DNA of 64,000 bases from positions 1 through 64,000 of the forward strand of contig CALGKB010000007.1 of the NCBI GenBank assembly GCA_937927915.1, read 5' to 3'. Position numbers and translations under genes: made by a program. Shown here piece by piece: positions 44,827 through 53,852 of the stretch. The stretch is from an uncultured Pseudanabaenaceae cyanobacterium (GTDB taxonomy: Bacteria; Cyanobacteriota; Cyanobacteriia; Pseudanabaenales; Pseudanabaenaceae). The notes below the pieces were generated by a model. The model saw nothing but the letters and a program-made list of their open reading frames with translations. It was not told where the DNA came from and did not search any database. Within the stretch, counting starts at the first letter, position 1; every line of letters starts with the position of its first letter.

Positions 44827-45990
44827 CTATTTTTGTTCTTTTGTTAACCGCTCGATTCTTCTTGCTAACACCTTTGCTCCCTCGCTATCCCCCAATTGCT
44901 GTTTGAGAAGCATGAGATGTACTAGGGCGGCATAATGATTGGGATTAATGTACAGAGCTTTTTGATAGGATTCCATCGCCTGTTGGATATTGTTTTGCGC
45001 CTGATAGATTTCGCCTAGGAGAGTATGGGCATGGGCATCGAGGGGTTGGTCTTGCAGATAGGTCTGACAGAGGTGGAGGGCGGTGGCAAAGTTATTGTTA
45101 TCTGCTTGGCGCTGCGCTTCTGCCAGTAGATCGGGAGCAACGACAGGGGGCGGGGGTGGGGGAGAAGGAATCGATGGGGGTAAAACAGGGGGCGGGGAGA
45201 GCGGGGGTTGGGACTTACGAAAGACAAAGGCTTTAACACTACCTGCCAAAACAAAGTTACTCTCTGCTAGACAGCCGGCTTCTGAGTGACCGACAAATAA
45301 CAGACCATTATTGGTCATCGCTCTGTGCAGATTTTGTAGGGCTTTTGCCCGACTATCCCGATCGAGGTAGATCAACAAGTTACGACAGAAAACAATGTCA
45401 TAGTAATTAACTTTTTGGAATTGCAAGATATTACCGTATTGAAAGTTAACCTGCCTTTTGATGGTATCCAGGAGTTGGTAAGTGTCATTGACAAAAGTAA
45501 AATAACGATCGATAATCTGGGGGTCAGTGCCACGGAAAGAGTTTTTTGTATAGATGCCTGCCTTTGCCTTTTCCAACGCTCGGTAACTGACATCCACAGC
45601 ATCGATGGTGAACTGATAGGGCAGCAATCCTGCTTCCAACAGAGCAATAGCAAGAGAATAGGGTTCTTCCCCCGTCGCACAGGGCAAGCTCAGCACCCGC
45701 CAAGGCAAGCGTTGTCGTTGGAGATGCTCCCTTTGCACAAAACTTTGCAGAAATAAAAATGGCTCCCGATCGCGGTAAAACCAAGTTTCCGGTACCACCA
45801 CTGCCTCAATCAGAGCTTGTAGTTCTGCAGGGGAGCGCTGTAACAGGTTGTAATAGTCCCTTGCATCTGTAACATTGACGGCAGTCATGCGTTGTTTAAT
45901 TGCCGCCACAATGGGAGCAGTCCCGATCGTGCTGCTATCTAAACCAATCTTCTCCCGCAACAGTTCAAGAATAGGAGTTGTCAACCTCAT
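44827..45990 (-). CDS. cheR: CheR chemoreceptor methyltransferase with TPR tail (WspC-like)
   Basis: A 387-residue protein. The N-terminal CheR domains (about 1-250) carry the SAM site LSLPCATGEEPYSLAIALLE, preceded by VVVPETWFYRDREPF; the latter is close to WspC-type CheR. A proline-rich linker (PPLSPPPVLPPSIPSPPPPP) joins tetratricopeptide repeats (AHTLLGEIYQAQNNIQQAME, ALYINPNHYAALVHL). The methyltransferase adds methyl groups to receptor glutamates to set adaptation. It overlaps the cheW gene just upstream by 26 bases, and this pair is divergent from the rest of the chemosensory cluster. Confidence 0.94.
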   Translation of the reverse strand: MRLTTPILELLREKIGLDSSTIGTAPIVAAIKQRMTAVNVTDARDYYNLLQRSPAELQALIEAVVVPETWFYRDREPFLFLQSFVQREHLQRQRLPWRVLSLPCATGEEPYSLAIALLEAGLLPYQFTIDAVDVSYRALEKAKAGIYTKNSFRGTDPQIIDRYFTFVNDTYQLLDTIKRQVNFQYGNILQFQKVNYYDIVFCRNLLIYLDRDSRAKALQNLHRAMTNNGLLFVGHSEAGCLAESNFVLAGSVKAFVFRKSQPPLSPPPVLPPSIPSPPPPPPVVAPDLLAEAQRQADNNNFATALHLCQTYLQDQPLDAHAHTLLGEIYQAQNNIQQAMESYQKALYINPNHYAALVHLMLLKQQLGDSEGAKVLARRIERLTKEQK

Positions 45991-46432
45991 CCCCCATTAA
46001 CAGCAACTGCGGCTTGACCTTGGAGGCTAACCGATCGAGGCGGACCTGTTGAATCACCCCCTGTTCATCCATGACCAACTGCCCGTTAGTGAAAGCCATC
46101 TCCCCCATTGCCACTGTTTCCGTCACCTTTTCCGCCATTAACCCCCAAATTTGCCGCTTTTGCTCTAGGGCATGCTCTACCAAGATAATTCTAGTACTGA
46201 GGCGCGGCGCGGCTGCTTTGCCCTGCAACAACTGGCATAAATCTACAACCGGCACCAATTTGTCAAAATAGCGCATCAAACCAGCAATATAGGGAGGAGC
46301 CTGCCGTTGGGGAATCAAACGCACTAGGGGTACGATCGTTAAAATATAGCGACATTCTAAAGCGTAGCGCTCTTCCCCGCACTGGAACAATAACATCAAC
46401 ATAGCAGGACAGCTGTGAAGCATTAAGATCAT
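45965..46432 (-). CDS. cheW: CheW adaptor (WspB-like)
   Basis: A scaffold protein that ties receptors to CheA. The CheW core begins LLFQCGEERYALECRYILTI and contains PYIAGLMRYFDKLVPVVDLC. The longest frame is 155 residues from 46432; since family members start right before LLFQ, the ATG at 46402 (145 residues) is also plausible, and neither has a good ribosome-binding site. Only 35 bases separate this start from divergent cheB, so the whole cluster may share one control region. It overlaps cheR. Confidence 0.9.
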   Translation of the reverse strand: MILMLHSCPAMLMLLFQCGEERYALECRYILTIVPLVRLIPQRQAPPYIAGLMRYFDKLVPVVDLCQLLQGKAAAPRLSTRIILVEHALEQKRQIWGLMAEKVTETVAMGEMAFTNGQLVMDEQGVIQQVRLDRLASKVKPQLLLMGDEVDNSYS

Positions 46433-46467
46433 TCTAGGACTGCCAGGGAAAAATCAATTGGAGGATT

Positions 46468-47433
46468 ATGCGCATTGCCATTGTCAACGATACACTCATA
46501 GAAGTAGAACTGCTGCGGCGGTTGATTACCTCTGTGCCAGGGTACGAGATAGCATGGGTAGCCAGAGATGGAGAAGAGGCTGTCAGTAAAGCCCAAACCG
46601 ATACCCCAGACCTGATTTTGATGAATCTCATTATGCCCCGCATGGATGGGGTGACCGCCACGGAACTGATTATGAAACAATCCCCCTGCGCTATCCTGAT
46701 CGTGACATCGGGAGTGAAGGAACATTCTGCCCGCATTTTTGCCGCTATGGGACACGGTGCCCTCGATGTGGTGGATACTCCCTCCCTCCAGGATAAAACC
46801 ATCCTCACCAAAATTGCCAATATTGCTAAACTGCTGCAAAAAAACGGTAATAGTAGTGCCAAAGTTATCCCTAAACTAATAGCGATCGGGGCTTCTACCG
46901 GTGGACCCAAGGCAGTTGCCCACATCCTAGCGCAGTTGCCCAGGGATTTAAGTGCCGCTGTAGTCGTCATTCAACACGTCGATGCCCACTTTGCCCAAGG
47001 ATTGTGTGAATGGTTGAACGAACAGTCCGCTCTGCCCGTGGAAATTGCCCAGGCAAATCAAACTCCCACTGCGGGTCGCGTCTTTCTCTCCAGTACCAAT
47101 GACCATCTGGTGATGACTGCCCAACAGACCTTCCAGTACACCCCCGAACCCAAGGATACCCCCTATCGTCCCTCCGTCGATGCCTTTTTCCGCAGTTTGC
47201 ACCAACATTGGCGCAGTAAAGGAATTGCTATGGTCTTAACAGGTATGGGTAGTGACGGTGCCGCAGGCTTGAAACTATTGAAAGAAAAGGGGTGGTACAC
47301 GATCGCCCAGGATGAAGCCACCAGCGTTGTGTATGGCATGCCTAAAGCCGCCAAGGAACTAGGAGCCGCCACTGACATTCTCCCCATAGATAGGATTGTG
47401 CCTGCCTGTATTCGCCACCTAGAGAGACTATGA
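46468..47433 (+). CDS. cheB: CheB methylesterase with Asn at phosphoacceptor site (WspF-like)
   Basis: A 321-residue receptor demethylase. The catalytic domain is intact: S143 (GASTGGPKA), H170 (VVIQHVDAHF) and D263 (TGMGSDGAAGL). The N-terminal receiver resembles WspF (MRIAIVNDT, DTPDLILM, GALDVVDTPS), but the usual phosphoacceptor Asp is Asn53 in LILMNLIMPRMDG, and the conserved receiver Lys is also absent. It therefore cannot be activated by ordinary CheA phosphotransfer, unless Asn53 is deamidated or a base call is wrong. TTGGAGG precedes the ATG. The stop overlaps the next gene by four bases (ATGA). Confidence 0.94.
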   Translation: MRIAIVNDTLIEVELLRRLITSVPGYEIAWVARDGEEAVSKAQTDTPDLILMNLIMPRMDGVTATELIMKQSPCAILIVTSGVKEHSARIFAAMGHGALDVVDTPSLQDKTILTKIANIAKLLQKNGNSSAKVIPKLIAIGASTGGPKAVAHILAQLPRDLSAAVVVIQHVDAHFAQGLCEWLNEQSALPVEIAQANQTPTAGRVFLSSTNDHLVMTAQQTFQYTPEPKDTPYRPSVDAFFRSLHQHWRSKGIAMVLTGMGSDGAAGLKLLKEKGWYTIAQDEATSVVYGMPKAAKELGAATDILPIDRIVPACIRHLERL

Positions 47434-48677
47434 ATAACAGCCGTTTTATCTCCGATTTTAGCCGTTATCCCGCCGCGGTTTTATTGGTGGATGACCAACC
47501 GATGGTGGCAGAGGCTGTGCGCCGTATGCTAGTAGGAGAGAGCAACATCTCTTTCTTCTATTGTGATGACCCTGCCCAAGCAATTAAGACTGCAATTGAT
47601 GTCTCCCCCACCGTAATTTTACAGGACTTAGTCATGCCGGATATTGATGGCATTATGCTTGTCAAATTTTTCCGCTCCCACCCCTCTACCCGCAATATCC
47701 CCATGATTGTTTTATCCACCAAAGAAGACCCCAAACTCAAAGCAGAGGCTTTTGCCGTCGGTGCCAATGACTATTTAATTAAATTACCTGACAAAGCGGA
47801 ACTCATTGCCCGCATCCGTTATCATTCCCGTGCCTATTTGAATCTCTGTTTAGCGGAGGAAAGAGCCACCCAGCTAGCCCTTGCCAATGAACAAATTAGT
47901 AAACTCAATGCCCGTCTCAAACGGGAGAATTTACGCTTGAGCACCGAGTTAGACGTTGCTCGCAAAATTCAAGCTATGATTTTACCCAAGTCCGATGAAC
48001 TAAAGGAGCTAAAAAAGTTAGATATTGATGGGTTTATGGAGCCAGCCTCTGAGGTGGGGGGAGATTACTACGATGTCTGGCAAAACAATGGTGTCTTGCA
48101 TTTGAGTATCGGGGATGTGACGGGGCATGGCTTAGAAAGTGGTCTTTTGATGCTAATGGTGCAGACAGCCGTGCGAGCCATTTCCGCTGTAGATGTTTCT
48201 GACCCCATTGCCTTTCTGCAAGCTCTCAACAAAGTAATTTATGATAATACTAGAAGAATTAACAGCGATCGGAATTTAAGTTTCATCCTTCTATCCTACA
48301 AAAACAACCAGTTGACTATCACTGGGCAGCATGAGTCTGTGATTTTGCTAAAGCATACAGGGGAAATTGAGTTAATTGATTCCATTGATCTAGGCTTTCC
48401 CTTAGGTTTAGAAGCAGACATCCAACCCTTTATTCACACTGTTAGTGCTCCTTTTGAAAGCGGCGACACGATCGTTCTATACACCGATGGCATAGTAGAG
48501 GCAGAAAACAGCAAAAAAGAACACTATGGCTTAGAGAGACTCTGTATGCAGTTAAAAGAAAATGCCTATAAACCTGCCCAAGAAATACGCAAAGCCATTA
48601 TCAAAGACCTCAAAGCTCACATTGGCAAGCAGCGCATCTATGACGACATTACTCTCTTAGTGATCAAACATCCCTAG
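47430..48677 (+). CDS. WspR-like receiver fused to a PP2C/SpoIIE-type phosphatase
   Basis: A 415-residue response regulator. The receiver (about 10-140) has phosphoacceptor D66 in PTVILQDLVMPDIDG and long stretches that recall WspR (AAVLLVDDQPMVAEAVRRML, PMIVLSTKEDPKLKAEAFAV, ARIRYHSRAYLNLCLAEE). After a coiled coil (about 140-185) comes a PP2C-type Ser/Thr phosphatase of the RsbU/SpoIIE class (about 195-412) instead of the GGDEF domain of WspR. Metal-site acidic residues are in GGDYYDV, SIGDVTGHG and RIYDDITLLV. RsbU-type enzymes dephosphorylate STAS-domain antagonists in partner switching. No STAS or anti-sigma gene is in the window. Confidence 0.93.
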   Translation: MNNSRFISDFSRYPAAVLLVDDQPMVAEAVRRMLVGESNISFFYCDDPAQAIKTAIDVSPTVILQDLVMPDIDGIMLVKFFRSHPSTRNIPMIVLSTKEDPKLKAEAFAVGANDYLIKLPDKAELIARIRYHSRAYLNLCLAEERATQLALANEQISKLNARLKRENLRLSTELDVARKIQAMILPKSDELKELKKLDIDGFMEPASEVGGDYYDVWQNNGVLHLSIGDVTGHGLESGLLMLMVQTAVRAISAVDVSDPIAFLQALNKVIYDNTRRINSDRNLSFILLSYKNNQLTITGQHESVILLKHTGEIELIDSIDLGFPLGLEADIQPFIHTVSAPFESGDTIVLYTDGIVEAENSKKEHYGLERLCMQLKENAYKPAQEIRKAIIKDLKAHIGKQRIYDDITLLVIKHP

Positions 48678-48733
48678 CAATATGTACCCCTATGGGATAG
48701 AATAAAAGCCTGTAAAGTGAGAGGGAGTCGGAA

Positions 48734-50494
48734 ATGTTCAAAAATATGACACTGCAAGCGCGTATCGTTACTGCCTTTCTGTTTATGGCAGTGCTGGTAG
48801 TTGTAGTGGCAGGTGTTGGCTTTTGGGGAATTCGCTCCCTCGCTTACCGAATTTCTGTGATTAAAACTAACTCCTATCCCACCGCTATTGTTTTATTACG
48901 CCTACAGCAGACACACCTTAACCAACAGTCTGCTATTCGTTTACTCCTCAGAAGTAATACCACCTTGGAAGAACGAGCTAGAGGAGACAGGGAATTAAGC
49001 AACGCCATTGCAGAAGCTCCTAAAGTTATCCAAGCCTACGATACTCTACCCCGTGATGAGGCGGAAGACAAAATATTTCAAAACTTCAAGGCGAAATGGG
49101 CAAACTGGGAAAGGCTACTGGGCAATATTAAAAGTTTGTTGGATGAGTACAAAGATTTGGCGGTAGTTGATCCGCGTAAAACTGTAATGGAACTGCGGTT
49201 GGCAGGACGCACTAATACCATCGAATTTACCAAAGCACAGCGATCGGTGGAAATCCTAGAAAAAATTCTGGACATCAAGAGACGGGAAAGCGATCAGAGT
49301 TTTGAGGAGGTACAGCGGGCAATAGAGGAGTTAGTAAGTTACAGTCAGTCCTTTGCCGAAAAGACGTTCCAGCAAGCGGGGCGCAATGTGCAAGTAGCTA
49401 GTTTTTGGATTACAGTCTGGACTGCCATTGGTCCTATTACTGCTGTCGTATTTGGTATTTTATTCAGCAATACTATTGCCAAACCTTTGGGGGCTAAAAT
49501 TGCTACAGTGGTTGCTATAGCGGAAAAAATAGCGCAGGGGGATTTAACTTCCCAGGTACAAGAAGCAGAGGTCAAAGATGAAATTGGGCGCTTATTGGAT
49601 GCCTTCCGTTTGATGACTTCTAGCCTTAATAACTTAATAGCCCAAGTGAACCAGTCGGGGATCAAAATTACCTCTTCTGCTACTCAAATTGCGGCATCAG
49701 GTAAACAGTTAGAAGCCACGGTCAATGAACAGGTAGCCTCCACTAACGAAGTAGTCGCTACAGCGAAAGAAATTGCTGCCACCTCCACAGAATTGTCCCG
49801 GGTGATGCGGGAAGTTGCTCACCTCGCCGATACCACAACTAGTGCTGCTGCCACAGGGCAAAAAGATTTAGAAATTATGGAAAGAAATATGCGACAAATA
49901 GCGGATGGCACTGCTTCTATTTCATCGCGGTTGGGGGTAATTAGTGAGAAGGCAAACAATATTAACACAATTGTTACTACTATCACTAAAGTTGCAGACC
50001 AGACCAACTTATTATCCCTCAATGCTGCTATTGAAGCAGAGAAAGCGGGGGAATATGGCTTAGGTTTTGCAGTGGTGGCGCGGGAAATTCGTCGCCTTGC
50101 CGATCAGACAGCCATTGCTACTTTGGACATTGAAAACATGGTGCAAGAAATGCAGTCAGCAGTAGCCAGTGGGGTGATGGAAATGGATAAATTCACCAAA
50201 GAAGTAGAGCGGGCAGTAGAAGACATCCGCAGTGTAGGGGGGAAATTAACACAAGTAATTAGCCAAGTACAGGAATTAGGACCACGCTTTGAAGCTGTCA
50301 ATCAGGGCATGGAAGCGCAGTCAATTGGTGCCAATCAAATTAGTGAGGCAATGTTGCAACTAAGTGAGGCAGCTAATCAAACAGCAGCAGCTCTGCGGGA
50401 AATCAATCGCGCAATTGAACAATTAAATGAGGCGAGTAAAGATCTAAGGCGAGAAATTTCGCGGTTTCAATTGCAACAATCCCGCCTGTTATGA
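48734..50494 (+). CDS. Methyl-accepting chemoreceptor (WspA-like)
   Basis: A 586-residue membrane receptor. The first membrane segment (about 10-32, IVTAFLFMAVLVVVVAGVGF) is followed by a ~185-residue periplasmic helical-bundle sensor, a second membrane segment (about 222-245), a HAMP domain (LGAKIATVVAIAEKIAQGDL) and a signalling domain with the standard hairpin tip VADQTNLLSLNAAIEAEKAG. The layout and the helical sensor are like WspA, which reports surface contact or envelope stress. It overlaps the next gene by four bases (ATGA). Confidence 0.94.
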   Translation: MFKNMTLQARIVTAFLFMAVLVVVVAGVGFWGIRSLAYRISVIKTNSYPTAIVLLRLQQTHLNQQSAIRLLLRSNTTLEERARGDRELSNAIAEAPKVIQAYDTLPRDEAEDKIFQNFKAKWANWERLLGNIKSLLDEYKDLAVVDPRKTVMELRLAGRTNTIEFTKAQRSVEILEKILDIKRRESDQSFEEVQRAIEELVSYSQSFAEKTFQQAGRNVQVASFWITVWTAIGPITAVVFGILFSNTIAKPLGAKIATVVAIAEKIAQGDLTSQVQEAEVKDEIGRLLDAFRLMTSSLNNLIAQVNQSGIKITSSATQIAASGKQLEATVNEQVASTNEVVATAKEIAATSTELSRVMREVAHLADTTTSAAATGQKDLEIMERNMRQIADGTASISSRLGVISEKANNINTIVTTITKVADQTNLLSLNAAIEAEKAGEYGLGFAVVAREIRRLADQTAIATLDIENMVQEMQSAVASGVMEMDKFTKEVERAVEDIRSVGGKLTQVISQVQELGPRFEAVNQGMEAQSIGANQISEAMLQLSEAANQTAAALREINRAIEQLNEASKDLRREISRFQLQQSRLL

Positions 50495-51168
50495 ACAGCA
50501 TCTTACCACCCCATTGTTGGCGAGCAATTGGTATTTGGGGCGATCGTTCCTGCTCTAAACTAGCACAGCATATTCATTGCCATAACTGTCCCATTTATGC
50601 TAGCGCAGGGAGGGAATTATTAGAGCGCTCTTCCCCCCTTGATTATCGTGAGGAGTGGACAGGATTCTTTAGCAAAATTCCTGTGGGAGAAACAGACAAG
50701 GGGATCGATACTCTGTCAGTGGGTATTTTCCGCTTGGGAGAGGAATATTTTGCCCTTGCTTCTCATCTTTTTGCCGAAGTAACCGATATTTTACCCATTC
50801 ACACCATCCCCCATCGCAGCAATGACATTCTCTTAGGTATGGTCAACATCAGGGGGGAAATTCAGTTATGTGTTTCTCTGCACAATTTGTTAGGCATTAG
50901 TAGCAACGAAAGAGCAATTACAAAAAAGAAAACCCTAGAACAGCGACGCATGGTCGTTGTGGCAAAGGGCAGCGATCGGTGGGTATTTATAGTCGATGAA
51001 ATGCATGGTATCTATCGCCTACAGGCACAATTATTTAATCCCCCCACAACAGTAAGTAAACGATCGGATGCTTACAATTACAAAGTTTTTCGCTGGCAAG
51101 AGCGCCAAGTAGGTTTGCTAGAGCCAGATTTACTATTCCAAAGTCTCAGTCGGAGGGTGTTATGTTGA
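50491..51168 (+). CDS. cheW: CheW adaptor with N-terminal cysteine motif (WspD-like)
   Basis: A 225-residue CheW. The core (about 75-220) is seen in LSVGIFRLGEEYFALASHLF and LGMVNIRGEIQLCVSLHNLL. The N-terminal ~60 residues have a fixed Cys/His pattern, CWRAIGIWGDRSC then HIHCHNCPIYA, which recalls WspD proteins and may bind a metal or a redox centre. In Wsp, WspD joins the receptor with WspB in the signalling complex. It overlaps both the receptor gene (4 bases) and cheA (7 bases). Confidence 0.92.
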   Translation: MNSILPPHCWRAIGIWGDRSCSKLAQHIHCHNCPIYASAGRELLERSSPLDYREEWTGFFSKIPVGETDKGIDTLSVGIFRLGEEYFALASHLFAEVTDILPIHTIPHRSNDILLGMVNIRGEIQLCVSLHNLLGISSNERAITKKKTLEQRRMVVVAKGSDRWVFIVDEMHGIYRLQAQLFNPPTTVSKRSDAYNYKVFRWQERQVGLLEPDLLFQSLSRRVLC

Positions 51169-53852
51169 TTGATGATTCCCTGCTCGATTTATTTCTATTG
51201 GAGGTACAAAATTATACCCATCTGTTTACCCAGGAACTATTTGGCAAAGCAGAACCTGACTTGGAGGTACTTATACGGGCAGCCCATTCTATCAAGGGAG
51301 CAGCAAAAATTGTGGGCTTACATGATATTGCCCAGTTAGCAGGCGCCCTAGAAAACTATGTGGAAAAGGGGGCAGGAGTTGAACTGGAAAAGTTGGGGGT
51401 AGCAGTCAATTTTTTGCGGGCACTGGGCTACGTTACCCCCACTGCCCTACAGCAATTATTACCTGAAATTCACAAAATTGTGCAAATTCACTTAGAAAAA
51501 ATTGCTCAGCCAGACCAACCCGAAGAAGTTGTGATACCAGTTCCTGTTAAGACTGTGCCAGAACAACCGATCGTGGACAGTACCATGCCCGATCTAAGTG
51601 ACCTTTCCATGCTGGAACTGTTCAAATTAGAGGTAGAAAATCAGGTTCATGTTTTGAATGAAGGGTTATTAAAACTAGAGAGCGACCTCAGGGACATTGA
51701 GCAAATTGATACTCTGATGCGAGCAGCACATTCCATTAAGGGGGCGGCCAGGATTGTGCAAATAGAAGCAGTGGTGCAAATTTCCCACATCATGGAAGAC
51801 TGTTTTATTAGTGCTAAGGAGGGAAAACTAACACTGACAACCCACCACTTAGATACTTTGTTTACAGCAGTTGATTTAATTGCAGCGATCGGTAAAACTC
51901 TACCAGATTCCCTGGATGATCTACAAACAGAAATTCAAGCAATAGTAAATGCTTTGCATGCTATTTATAGCAATACAGATGTCTCTCCCAAGACAACGCC
52001 TGTGCCAGAAGTTAGCAGTATAGAAAAGAGAGAAACCGAGGAAATACAAGAGCAGCCTAAACAAGTTAAACCCGATGGGAAAAGTGCTAATAAAACAGAT
52101 GTCCCTGGGACAGAAAGGGTAGTGCGAGTTAGTAAAGAAAACCTCAATCGTTTGATGGGTCTAGCGGGGGAATCCCTTGTCGCTGCTAATTGGCTACAAC
52201 CCTTTGCTGATTCCCTGTTGAAATTAAAGACTACCCAAACGGAACTATCCCGCTTATTAGAAAGAGCAAATGATGAACTTAGTAATAACAAATTCCTGGG
52301 GGAATATGAATTAAGATTTTTACGCTCTGCTATTTTAAAGGCGGAGCAATGCCGTCAATTGCTGACCGATCGGTTGAATGAATTGGAACTATTTGCCCGC
52401 CAATCAGCTAACTTGTCCGATCGTTTATATCGGGAAGTGATTGCCAGTCATATGCGCCCCTTTGCCGACGGTATTCAGGCATTTCCCCGCATGGTCAGGG
52501 ATGTCGCCAGAAAGTTAAACAAACAAGTGCACTTAGAAATTTTGGGCAAGTCCACTCAAGTCGATCGGGATATTTTGGAAAAACTAGAAGCTCCCCTCAC
52601 CCACATCTTAAGAAATGCCATTGATCACGGGATAGAACCCCCAGAGGAAAGGATTAGTAAGGGTAAACCCCCTGTGGGCACAATTCGTTTAGAAGCTAGC
52701 CATCGGGCAGGAATGTTGATGATCACTGTGACAGATGATGGGCGGGGTATTGATACAGAAAAATTGAAGGCGAAAATTATCAGTAAGGGTCTGTCCACAC
52801 CAGCGATCGTCAATCAAATGACGGAGGGAGAATTAATAGATTTTTTGTTTCTGCCCGGCTTTTCGACGGCACAACAGGTGAGTGAAATTTCGGGGCGGGG
52901 GGTGGGGTTAGATATTGTGCAAAGTATGGTGCAGGAGGTGGGGGGTACTGTCAAAGCCACATCCCAATTAGGTAAAGGCACGACATTTCATCTGCAACTC
53001 CCCCTCACCCTCTCGGTCATTCGTACTTTGTTAGTTGCCATTAGTAAAGAAACCTATGCTTTTCCCCTCTCCCGTATTGATTTTATTACGATCGTGCAGC
53101 GGCACCAAATTCACACCTTGGAAACAAGGGAGTATTTTACTTTTAATAATCAGCAGATTGGTATTATTTCTGCTGCCCAAGTCCTACAATTGCCTGCCCA
53201 TTCCCAGACAACGGATGAAATTCCTGTCATTGTCATTAGCGATCGGTTTAGTACCTATGGTTTGGTGGTGGATAAATTTTTAGGGGAAAAAGAATTAGTT
53301 GTGCGTCCCCTTGACCCCCGCCTGGGGAAAGTTCCGAATATCAGCGCTGCTGCCTTGATGGAAGATGGCTCCCCCACTTTGATTGTCGATGTAGAGGATT
53401 TGGTGCGCTCCATTGATAAATTACTCAACACTAATCTAGTAGAACATATTGCCTACGATGACAAATTAGTGACCAGGAAAAAGCGAGTTTTAGTAGTGGA
53501 TGACTCCCTCACTGTCAGGGAGGTGGAAAAGAAATTATTAGAAAATCACGGTTACGAAGTGGTAGCAGCGATCGATGGTGTGGACGGCTGGAATGTCCTC
53601 ACTATAGATGGAAATTTTGACCTCCTTATTACTGATATAGATATGCCGCGCATGAACGGCTTAGAGTTAGTCAGCCGTATTCGCAATCATCCCAACTTCA
53701 AAACTTTACCTGTAGTCATTGTCTCCTACAAAGACCGCGAAGAAGACCGCCTGCGGGGGTTAGAAGTGGGGGCTAATTTCTACCTCACCAAAAGCAGTTT
53801 CCACGACAATTCCCTCCTGCAAGCGGTGCAAGATTTGATCGGTCCGCCCTAA
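51162..53852 (+). CDS. cheA: Hybrid CheA kinase with two Hpt domains and C-terminal receiver (WspE-like)
   Basis: An 896-residue histidine kinase. Two Hpt domains both keep their phosphorylatable His: H42 and H190, each in an AAHSIKGAA motif. A Pro- and Lys-rich linker follows, then the dimerisation and ATPase domains (HILRNAIDHGIEPPEER, VTDDGRGID, GRGVGLDIV), a CheW-like domain and a C-terminal receiver with D825 (LLITDIDMPRMNG) and its Lys (YLTKSS). This is the WspE architecture, with an extra Hpt. Likely targets are its own receiver and the WspR-like phosphatase regulator; the CheB in the cluster lacks the acceptor Asp. It is the last gene of the overlapping cluster. Confidence 0.95.
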   Translation: MLIDDSLLDLFLLEVQNYTHLFTQELFGKAEPDLEVLIRAAHSIKGAAKIVGLHDIAQLAGALENYVEKGAGVELEKLGVAVNFLRALGYVTPTALQQLLPEIHKIVQIHLEKIAQPDQPEEVVIPVPVKTVPEQPIVDSTMPDLSDLSMLELFKLEVENQVHVLNEGLLKLESDLRDIEQIDTLMRAAHSIKGAARIVQIEAVVQISHIMEDCFISAKEGKLTLTTHHLDTLFTAVDLIAAIGKTLPDSLDDLQTEIQAIVNALHAIYSNTDVSPKTTPVPEVSSIEKRETEEIQEQPKQVKPDGKSANKTDVPGTERVVRVSKENLNRLMGLAGESLVAANWLQPFADSLLKLKTTQTELSRLLERANDELSNNKFLGEYELRFLRSAILKAEQCRQLLTDRLNELELFARQSANLSDRLYREVIASHMRPFADGIQAFPRMVRDVARKLNKQVHLEILGKSTQVDRDILEKLEAPLTHILRNAIDHGIEPPEERISKGKPPVGTIRLEASHRAGMLMITVTDDGRGIDTEKLKAKIISKGLSTPAIVNQMTEGELIDFLFLPGFSTAQQVSEISGRGVGLDIVQSMVQEVGGTVKATSQLGKGTTFHLQLPLTLSVIRTLLVAISKETYAFPLSRIDFITIVQRHQIHTLETREYFTFNNQQIGIISAAQVLQLPAHSQTTDEIPVIVISDRFSTYGLVVDKFLGEKELVVRPLDPRLGKVPNISAAALMEDGSPTLIVDVEDLVRSIDKLLNTNLVEHIAYDDKLVTRKKRVLVVDDSLTVREVEKKLLENHGYEVVAAIDGVDGWNVLTIDGNFDLLITDIDMPRMNGLELVSRIRNHPNFKTLPVVIVSYKDREEDRLRGLEVGANFYLTKSSFHDNSLLQAVQDLIGPP

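What the first reader, a model, noticed from the sequence alone, without database searches (positions are those of the whole stretch)
44827..53852. Wsp-type chemosensory system with a PP2C phosphatase in place of the GGDEF output
All Wsp parts can be matched: receptor, two CheW (one with the WspD Cys motif), CheR with TPRs, CheB, CheA-receiver, and a response regulator whose receiver strongly recalls WspR. The regulator's output is a RsbU/SpoIIE-type phosphatase, not a diguanylate cyclase. This implies that a surface- or envelope-sensing pathway drives protein dephosphorylation (probably a STAS partner switch) in this cyanobacterium. I know of no characterised Wsp system with this output.
Basis: partly seen in the sequence, partly recalled or inferred. 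Interest (0 to 1): 0.85.

Follow-up and report, generated by a model that had tools for sequence, protein, structure and literature searches.

The report
Wsp sensory array with phosphatase output
A cyanobacterium carries the same kind of sensory array that makes Pseudomonas form biofilms on surfaces, but its last part is a protein phosphatase instead of an enzyme that makes the messenger c-di-GMP; comparison with relatives suggests that the phosphatase throws a protein switch whose two other parts could be named.

Summary
In detail: all seven proteins are intact at the stated coordinates. The Wsp reading is supported by tests. The regulator's receiver is about 65% identical to Pseudomonas WspR receivers (next PDB family, PleD, is over 100 bits lower) and sits in a WspR-type clade apart from RsbU-type receivers. 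CheA falls in a Wsp clade apart from the genome's other CheAs, sister to Pseudanabaena, whose cluster keeps a REC-GGDEF regulator. So one chassis carries different outputs within one family.

The swap is not unique. WspR-type receivers are joined to GGDEF, PP2C, histidine kinase or adenylyl cyclase in many phyla. Phosphatase outputs in cheR-TPR clusters were tabulated in 2012, and Burkholderia WspH is a known kinase-output case.

New here is the probable partner. In 7 of 7 other cyanobacterial loci, and 0 of 28 with other outputs, WspR-type REC-PP2C is followed by slr1658 (SiaB-like) and, where not cut by a contig end, slr1659 (STAS/SiaC-like). The window's genome has one such pair, unlinked, plus candidate effectors, including a diguanylate cyclase with two copies of the stalk motif seen beside such pairs. 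Most likely the array controls a Sia-like partner switch. Partner and direction are inferred, not shown.

The parts
44827..45990 (-). WspC-like CheR methyltransferase with C-terminal TPRs
   Evidence: CheR 2.2e-43, TPR_1 2.4e-8; 75% identical in the same-genus genome, 40-42% in the Pseudanabaena clusters
45965..46432 (-). WspB-like CheW; likely start at 46402
   Evidence: CheW 2.1e-17; orthologues start at MLMLLF
46468..47433 (+). WspF-like CheB methylesterase with receiver
   Evidence: CheB_methylest 1e-57, Response_reg 1.6e-15
47430..48677 (+). Response regulator: WspR-type receiver joined to SpoIIE/PP2C phosphatase, in the place of WspR
47475..47822 (+). WspR-type receiver domain (about residues 16-131), phospho-acceptor D66
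   Evidence: 3i5a WspR E=3e-52, 3bre WspR E=4.8e-49, next PleD 5e-18; model against 3i5a Z 22.4, 1.1 A over 147 residues, 58% identity
47793..47981 (+). One long helix (residues 122-184) joining receiver and phosphatase in the predicted model
   Evidence: Model with mean pLDDT 83
48006..48674 (+). PP2C phosphatase domain (about residues 193-415) with D212, D229, D353, D405, D406
   Evidence: SpoIIE 1.2e-36; best solved match SiaA PP2C 6k4e, Z 28.7; invariant aspartates
48734..50494 (+). WspA-like chemoreceptor (4HB, HAMP, MCP signalling domain)
   Evidence: MCPsignal 6.4e-32, 4HB_MCP_1 6.6e-11, HAMP 9.4e-7; 56% identical to the Pseudanabaena receptor
50491..51168 (+). WspD-like CheW with N-terminal Cys motif
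   Evidence: CheW 1e-19; 52% identical to the Pseudanabaena copy
50515..50589 (+). Cys motif C-x11-C-x8-C-x2-C (C9, C21, C30, C33)
   Evidence: Same spacing in most Wsp-type CheW2 proteins from several phyla; x13 in five others
51162..53852 (+). WspE-like CheA: Hpt domains, kinase core, CheW domain, C-terminal receiver
   Evidence: inside the Wsp CheA clade, sister to Pseudanabaena

Best explanation
The cluster is an orthologous Wsp-type chemosensory array (WspA to WspF equivalents) whose WspR has kept its receiver but carries a PP2C phosphatase in place of GGDEF. Receptor, CheWs and CheA form the array; CheR-TPR and CheB adapt it; CheA should pass phosphate to D66 of the regulator. Phosphorylation is then expected to change the long helix between receiver and phosphatase and so switch the phosphatase. 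Its most likely substrate is the slr1659-type STAS/SiaC-like protein, with the slr1658-type SiaB-like protein as opposing kinase, encoded as a pair elsewhere in the genome. Dephosphorylated slr1659 would bind stalk motifs on effectors, of which this genome has a small diguanylate cyclase (two copies), a hybrid kinase (two copies), another kinase (one copy) and a weak hit in a second diguanylate cyclase. The c-di-GMP output of Wsp may thus be kept, but by a detour. Shown here: anatomy, orthology, different output on the same chassis, catalytic residues, synteny of PP2C with slr1658/9 in relatives. Inferred: phosphotransfer, substrate, direction, effector, signal.
For: Receiver is WspR-type (fold). 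CheA is in the Wsp clade, window plus same-genus copy sister to Pseudanabaena REC-GGDEF clusters (outputs). The PP2C belongs to the cyanobacterial subfamily whose other members lie beside slr1658/slr1659 pairs, and its best solved relative is SiaA, by sequence and by structure aligner. Adjacency: 7 of 7 other cyanobacterial WspR-type REC-PP2C loci against 0 of 28 with other outputs, Fisher p=1.5e-7, not corrected for kinship; with the window counted as a negative, p=9.6e-7. Own genome: one slr1658-family protein (NF052618, 228.9 bits, cut-off 200) followed by slr1659 (NF047705, 159.8 bits, cut-off 100), the latter also weakly PF09345 SiaC. slr1659 has an invariant NSSG, as SiaC has N67-T68-S69 with T68 phosphorylated (PMC8457831, PMC7647112). 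The stalk motif is in effectors beside slr1658/9 pairs and in at least three own-genome proteins. Two non-cyanobacterial loci have RsbW plus STAS beside a WspR-type REC-PP2C, which supports a partner switch in general.
Against: In the window's own genome the slr1658/9 pair lies on another contig, and seven other PP2C matches could serve it. The genome also has a classical RsbW-STAS pair (C3) and other STAS proteins. The PP2C tree puts the window's domain in the subfamily but apart from the two operon-linked Wsp-PP2C groups. In three of the seven synteny loci (G178, G141, G166) the receptor and CheA are not near. slr1658 shows no canonical DxGxG box to my eye, and its model failed (pLDDT 39), so kinase activity is only assumed. 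The stalk motif as a binding site is my inference by analogy with SiaD.
Confidence: 0.6

Rival explanations
1. Same Wsp-type array and phosphatase, but the substrate is a classical STAS anti-sigma antagonist paired with an RsbW-type kinase; the outcome is control of a sigma factor or another RsbW client.
For: The own genome has an RsbW-like plus STAS gene pair at C3 (L015) and other STAS proteins. Two non-cyanobacterial loci with WspR-type REC-PP2C have RsbW and STAS next to it (L064, L073).
Against: None of the cyanobacterial REC-PP2C loci has that pair adjacent; they have slr1658/9. The PP2Cs of L064 and L073 were too far from the window's to be kept by the BLAST length filter of the PP2C tree. 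The own genome's ordinary RR-PP2C at C5 already has a STAS gene beside it.
Confidence: 0.2
2. The phosphatase acts on several STAS-like and other phosphoproteins: a hub without one dedicated partner, with cross-talk from the other PP2Cs in the genome.
For: Eight PP2C matches, several STAS domains and two slr1659-type proteins but only one slr1658-type protein in the genome.
Against: Conserved synteny in seven relatives argues for a preferred partner.
Confidence: 0.15
3. The regulator works like P. aeruginosa RssB (also receiver, coil and PP2C-like domain), as an adaptor or binding protein and not as an enzyme.
For: RssB is the best full-length structural match (3f7a E 2.7e-24; 3eq2 Z 27.5).
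Against: The window's receiver is WspR-type, the catalytic aspartates are intact, and the phosphatase half is nearest to SiaA (Z 28.7).
Confidence: 0.05

Closest known systems
Wsp system of Pseudomonas (WspA-F with WspR)
   Same: Component set, WspR-type receiver, WspD Cys motif, CheR-TPR, CheA with receiver in one clade
   Different: PP2C in place of GGDEF; cheR/cheW divergent from the rest; cheB and regulator before the receptor; own CheA clade in cyanobacteria
WspH system of Burkholderia (PMC8552884)
   Same: Wsp core with the WspR output replaced
   Different: WspH is a hybrid kinase; here it is a phosphatase
cheR-TPR / ACF chemosensory clusters (PMC3447774)
   Same: Chemosensory clusters whose multidomain regulators include PP2C-type phosphatases
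   Different: That survey did not single out Wsp orthology, receiver kinship or the partner genes, as far as the parts of its main text that I read show
SiaABCD of P. aeruginosa (PMC7647112, PMC8457831)
   Same: PP2C, SiaB-like and STAS/SiaC-like proteins; effectors with two stalk motifs, including small diguanylate cyclases
   Different: SiaA is a membrane sensor phosphatase (own knowledge); here the phosphatase is driven by a chemosensory array; slr1658/9 are separate families by NCBIfam
HptB-HsbR-HsbA-HsbD of P. aeruginosa (named in PMC7647112)
   Same: A response regulator with phosphatase output acting through a STAS protein on a diguanylate cyclase (HsbR as REC-PP2C is from my own knowledge)
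   Different: Input by HptB, no chemoreceptor array; receiver not compared here

Membership tests
Wsp chemosensory system | Full set: receptor, two CheW, CheR-TPR, CheB, CheA-receiver, regulator | tested here: met
   same set in Pseudanabaena and others
Wsp chemosensory system | WspR-type receiver | tested here: met
   3i5a 3e-52 and 3bre 4.8e-49 against PleD 5e-18; WspR-type clade 99% SH-aLRT
Wsp chemosensory system | CheA of the Wsp clade, apart from other CheAs | tested here: met
   100% SH-aLRT
Wsp chemosensory system | WspD-type Cys motif in the second CheW | tested here: met
   C-x11-C-x8-C-x2-C
Wsp chemosensory system | GGDEF diguanylate cyclase output (WspR) | tested here: not met
   SpoIIE/PP2C instead, no GGDEF; so it is a Wsp-type chassis, not a WspR system
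Wsp chemosensory system | Response to surface contact or envelope stress | not testable with these tools
   Needs experiments
RsbU/SpoIIE-type partner-switch phosphatase | PP2C domain with metal-binding aspartates | tested here: met
   SpoIIE 1.2e-36; D212, D229, D353, D405, D406
RsbU/SpoIIE-type partner-switch phosphatase | Adjacent RsbW-type kinase and STAS antagonist | tested here: not met
   None in the cluster; a pair exists unlinked at C3
SiaABC partner switch | SiaA-like PP2C | tested here: inconclusive
   SiaA PP2C is the best solved relative but identity is only 22%; NCBIfam SiaA model far below cut-off
SiaABC partner switch | SiaB-type kinase | tested here: inconclusive
   Unlinked slr1658-family protein, DUF6272; SiaB_fam_kinase 27.7 bits, below cut-off 85
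SiaABC partner switch | SiaC-type phosphoprotein | tested here: inconclusive
   slr1659 family; PF09345 SiaC E=0.0084 and STAS E=4.8e-4, both below cut-off

The most novel reading that the evidence does not exclude
A Wsp array drives a Sia-like partner switch (REC-PP2C, slr1658, slr1659) that in turn controls diguanylate cyclases and kinases through stalk motifs: two signalling modules known only separately are joined in series, and the same PP2C subfamily was recruited to the Wsp receiver more than once in cyanobacteria.
Probability: 0.45. Interest if true: 0.75.

Novelty: new variant of a known kind. Interest (0 to 1): 0.58.

Why it matters
It shows that a sensory array of the surface-sensing kind can keep its input and receiver while its output is exchanged, here inside one cyanobacterial family, so the array and the response evolve as separate modules. 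It also gives the little-known slr1658/slr1659 proteins a testable upstream phosphatase and candidate effectors; slr1658 affects recovery from iron limitation and Pgr5 expression in Synechocystis (PMC7555055).

Tried and rejected
Ordinary RsbU-type regulator beside an unrelated che cluster: rejected by the receiver tree. Pil/Pix origin: rejected by the CheA tree; the genome's second CheR (C8) and its other CheAs are separate. One single origin of all cyanobacterial Wsp-PP2C fusions: disfavoured by the PP2C tree but only marginally by the AU test on the receiver (p=0.047). A clade of the window with the Pseudanabaena receivers is not rejected (p=0.48). Structure of slr1658: model too poor. Sequences of SiaC/SiaD were not compared with the stalk motif residue by residue. 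The trees are 'quick' ones with long branches in places. Presumed adenylyl cyclase outputs of about 505 aa were checked by Pfam only for some. Plasmid search with the regulator gave only partial matches below 60% identity. No paper on a cyanobacterial Wsp-type system with PP2C output was found in the held library, which lacks most subscription journals.

Full report
1. What is there. CheR-TPR and the first CheW run leftwards; CheB, REC-PP2C, receptor, second CheW and CheA run rightwards, with overlaps or short gaps. The cluster lies between a long chlH-like ORF (and a small methyltransferase ORF) and groES-groEL (chlH and groESL named by eye from sequence). The genome is 2.4 Mb in 13 contigs, GC near 0.49 in the window. 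One same-family genome (G020) has a contig of the same length as a Pseudanabaena sp. 'Roaring Creek' contig carrying the same cluster, so I take the family to be Pseudanabaenaceae; this is an inference.

2. Is it Wsp? The receiver of the regulator matches WspR of P. syringae and P. aeruginosa at E 3e-52 and 4.8e-49; the next family is PleD at 5e-18. Identity to Pseudomonas receivers is about 65% by BLAST, but 24-33% to receivers of other PP2C regulators, including one in the same genome. In a tree of 65 receivers the WspR type stands apart with 99% SH-aLRT, window included. The CheA falls with Wsp CheAs (100%) and not with the genome's other CheAs; inside, window plus same-genus copy are sister (97%) to two Pseudanabaena genomes. 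The Cys motif of the second CheW has the same spacing in most Wsp-type loci of several phyla. What fails is the GGDEF output: I call it a Wsp-type chassis, not a WspR system.

3. The output swap. In the two Pseudanabaena genomes the same cluster ends in REC-GGDEF; in another same-family genome the regulator is a REC-histidine kinase. Across bacteria the WspR-type receiver is joined to GGDEF, PP2C, kinase or class III cyclase. In an even sample of 386 cyanobacterial genomes 23 have such a receiver at E 1e-30 or better, the window's own included; in the window's family it is patchy. The PP2C tree places cyanobacterial Wsp-type PP2Cs in at least three separate spots within one cyanobacterial subfamily, and non-cyanobacterial ones elsewhere, which suggests repeated recruitment. 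The direction of each swap was not determined. Phosphatase outputs in cheR-TPR clusters were already listed in PMC3447774, and kinase-output WspH is described in PMC8552884.

4. The partner. In Brasilonema, Rhizonema, Scytonema (cut by the contig end) and four further genomes, the WspR-type REC-PP2C is followed, directly or after cheB, by genes of the slr1658 and slr1659 families. The count is 7 of 7 against 0 of 28 for loci with other outputs; relatedness is not corrected for, and some of the 28 loci hold only about 3.4 kb. In the wider phylum such pairs lie beside PP2Cs of the same subfamily and beside diguanylate or adenylyl cyclases. The window's genome has one slr1658 and, next to it, one slr1659 gene (C4:447047-447984), plus a second slr1659 type at C2. 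slr1659 has an invariant NSSG where SiaC has N67-T68-S69 (PMC8457831).

5. Effectors. Cyclases beside slr1658/9 pairs often carry one or two copies of a coiled-coil motif, roughly K-x-D-L-E-I-x-L-E-T-x-x-E-H-G-D. SiaD likewise has two SiaC-binding motifs on its stalk (PMC8457831). A profile of the motif finds, in the window's genome, a 282-aa diguanylate cyclase (two copies, GGEEF intact), a hybrid kinase (two), another kinase (one) and a weak hit in a second diguanylate cyclase. That this motif binds slr1659 is my inference by analogy.

6. Mechanism. The model of the regulator (mean pLDDT 83, eight sequences) shows a receiver, one long helix (122-184) and a PP2C domain. The receiver fits WspR at 1.1 A; the phosphatase fits SiaA best, Z 28.7; full length it resembles RssB. 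I expect CheA to phosphorylate D66 and the helix to pass the change to the phosphatase, which then acts on slr1659 and so on cyclases or kinases. Each of these steps is inferred. Whether the array senses surfaces here is unknown.

7. Verdict.

Noticed in passing
L047 and L225 (same-genus genome G002): The cluster is split there: cheR, cheW, cheB and REC-PP2C beside a chlH-like gene near a contig end, receptor, cheW and cheA beside groES-groEL about 855 kb away on the same contig; both halves are kept at 75-90% identity. Repeat-like ORFs follow the regulator.
   Followed up: partly
L226 and L227 (genomes G016, G005): Wsp-type clusters without a WspR-type regulator; after cheB come two proteins of about 343-355 aa; the two tested match no Pfam family.
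   Followed up: partly
50515-50589 and CheW2 of other loci: The four-Cys motif of WspD-like proteins (C-x11-C-x8-C-x2-C, or x13 in some) is nearly invariant; it looks like a metal or redox site, and PMC8552884 gives no function for the WspD motifs.
   Followed up: partly
L088 12550-14217, L086 10213-11865, L174 5159-6952: A mechanosensitive (MscS-type) channel gene follows slr1658/9 in the Brasilonema-type operons.
   Followed up: no
L195-L224, L244, L243: slr1658/slr1659 pairs with stalk-motif cyclases or kinases look like a common cyanobacterial Sia-like module.
   Followed up: partly
L228 and L056 (own genome, contigs C6 and C8): Separate chemosensory sets with their own CheA and CheB-like proteins (C6) and a CheR-TPR and double CheW (C8).
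   Followed up: no
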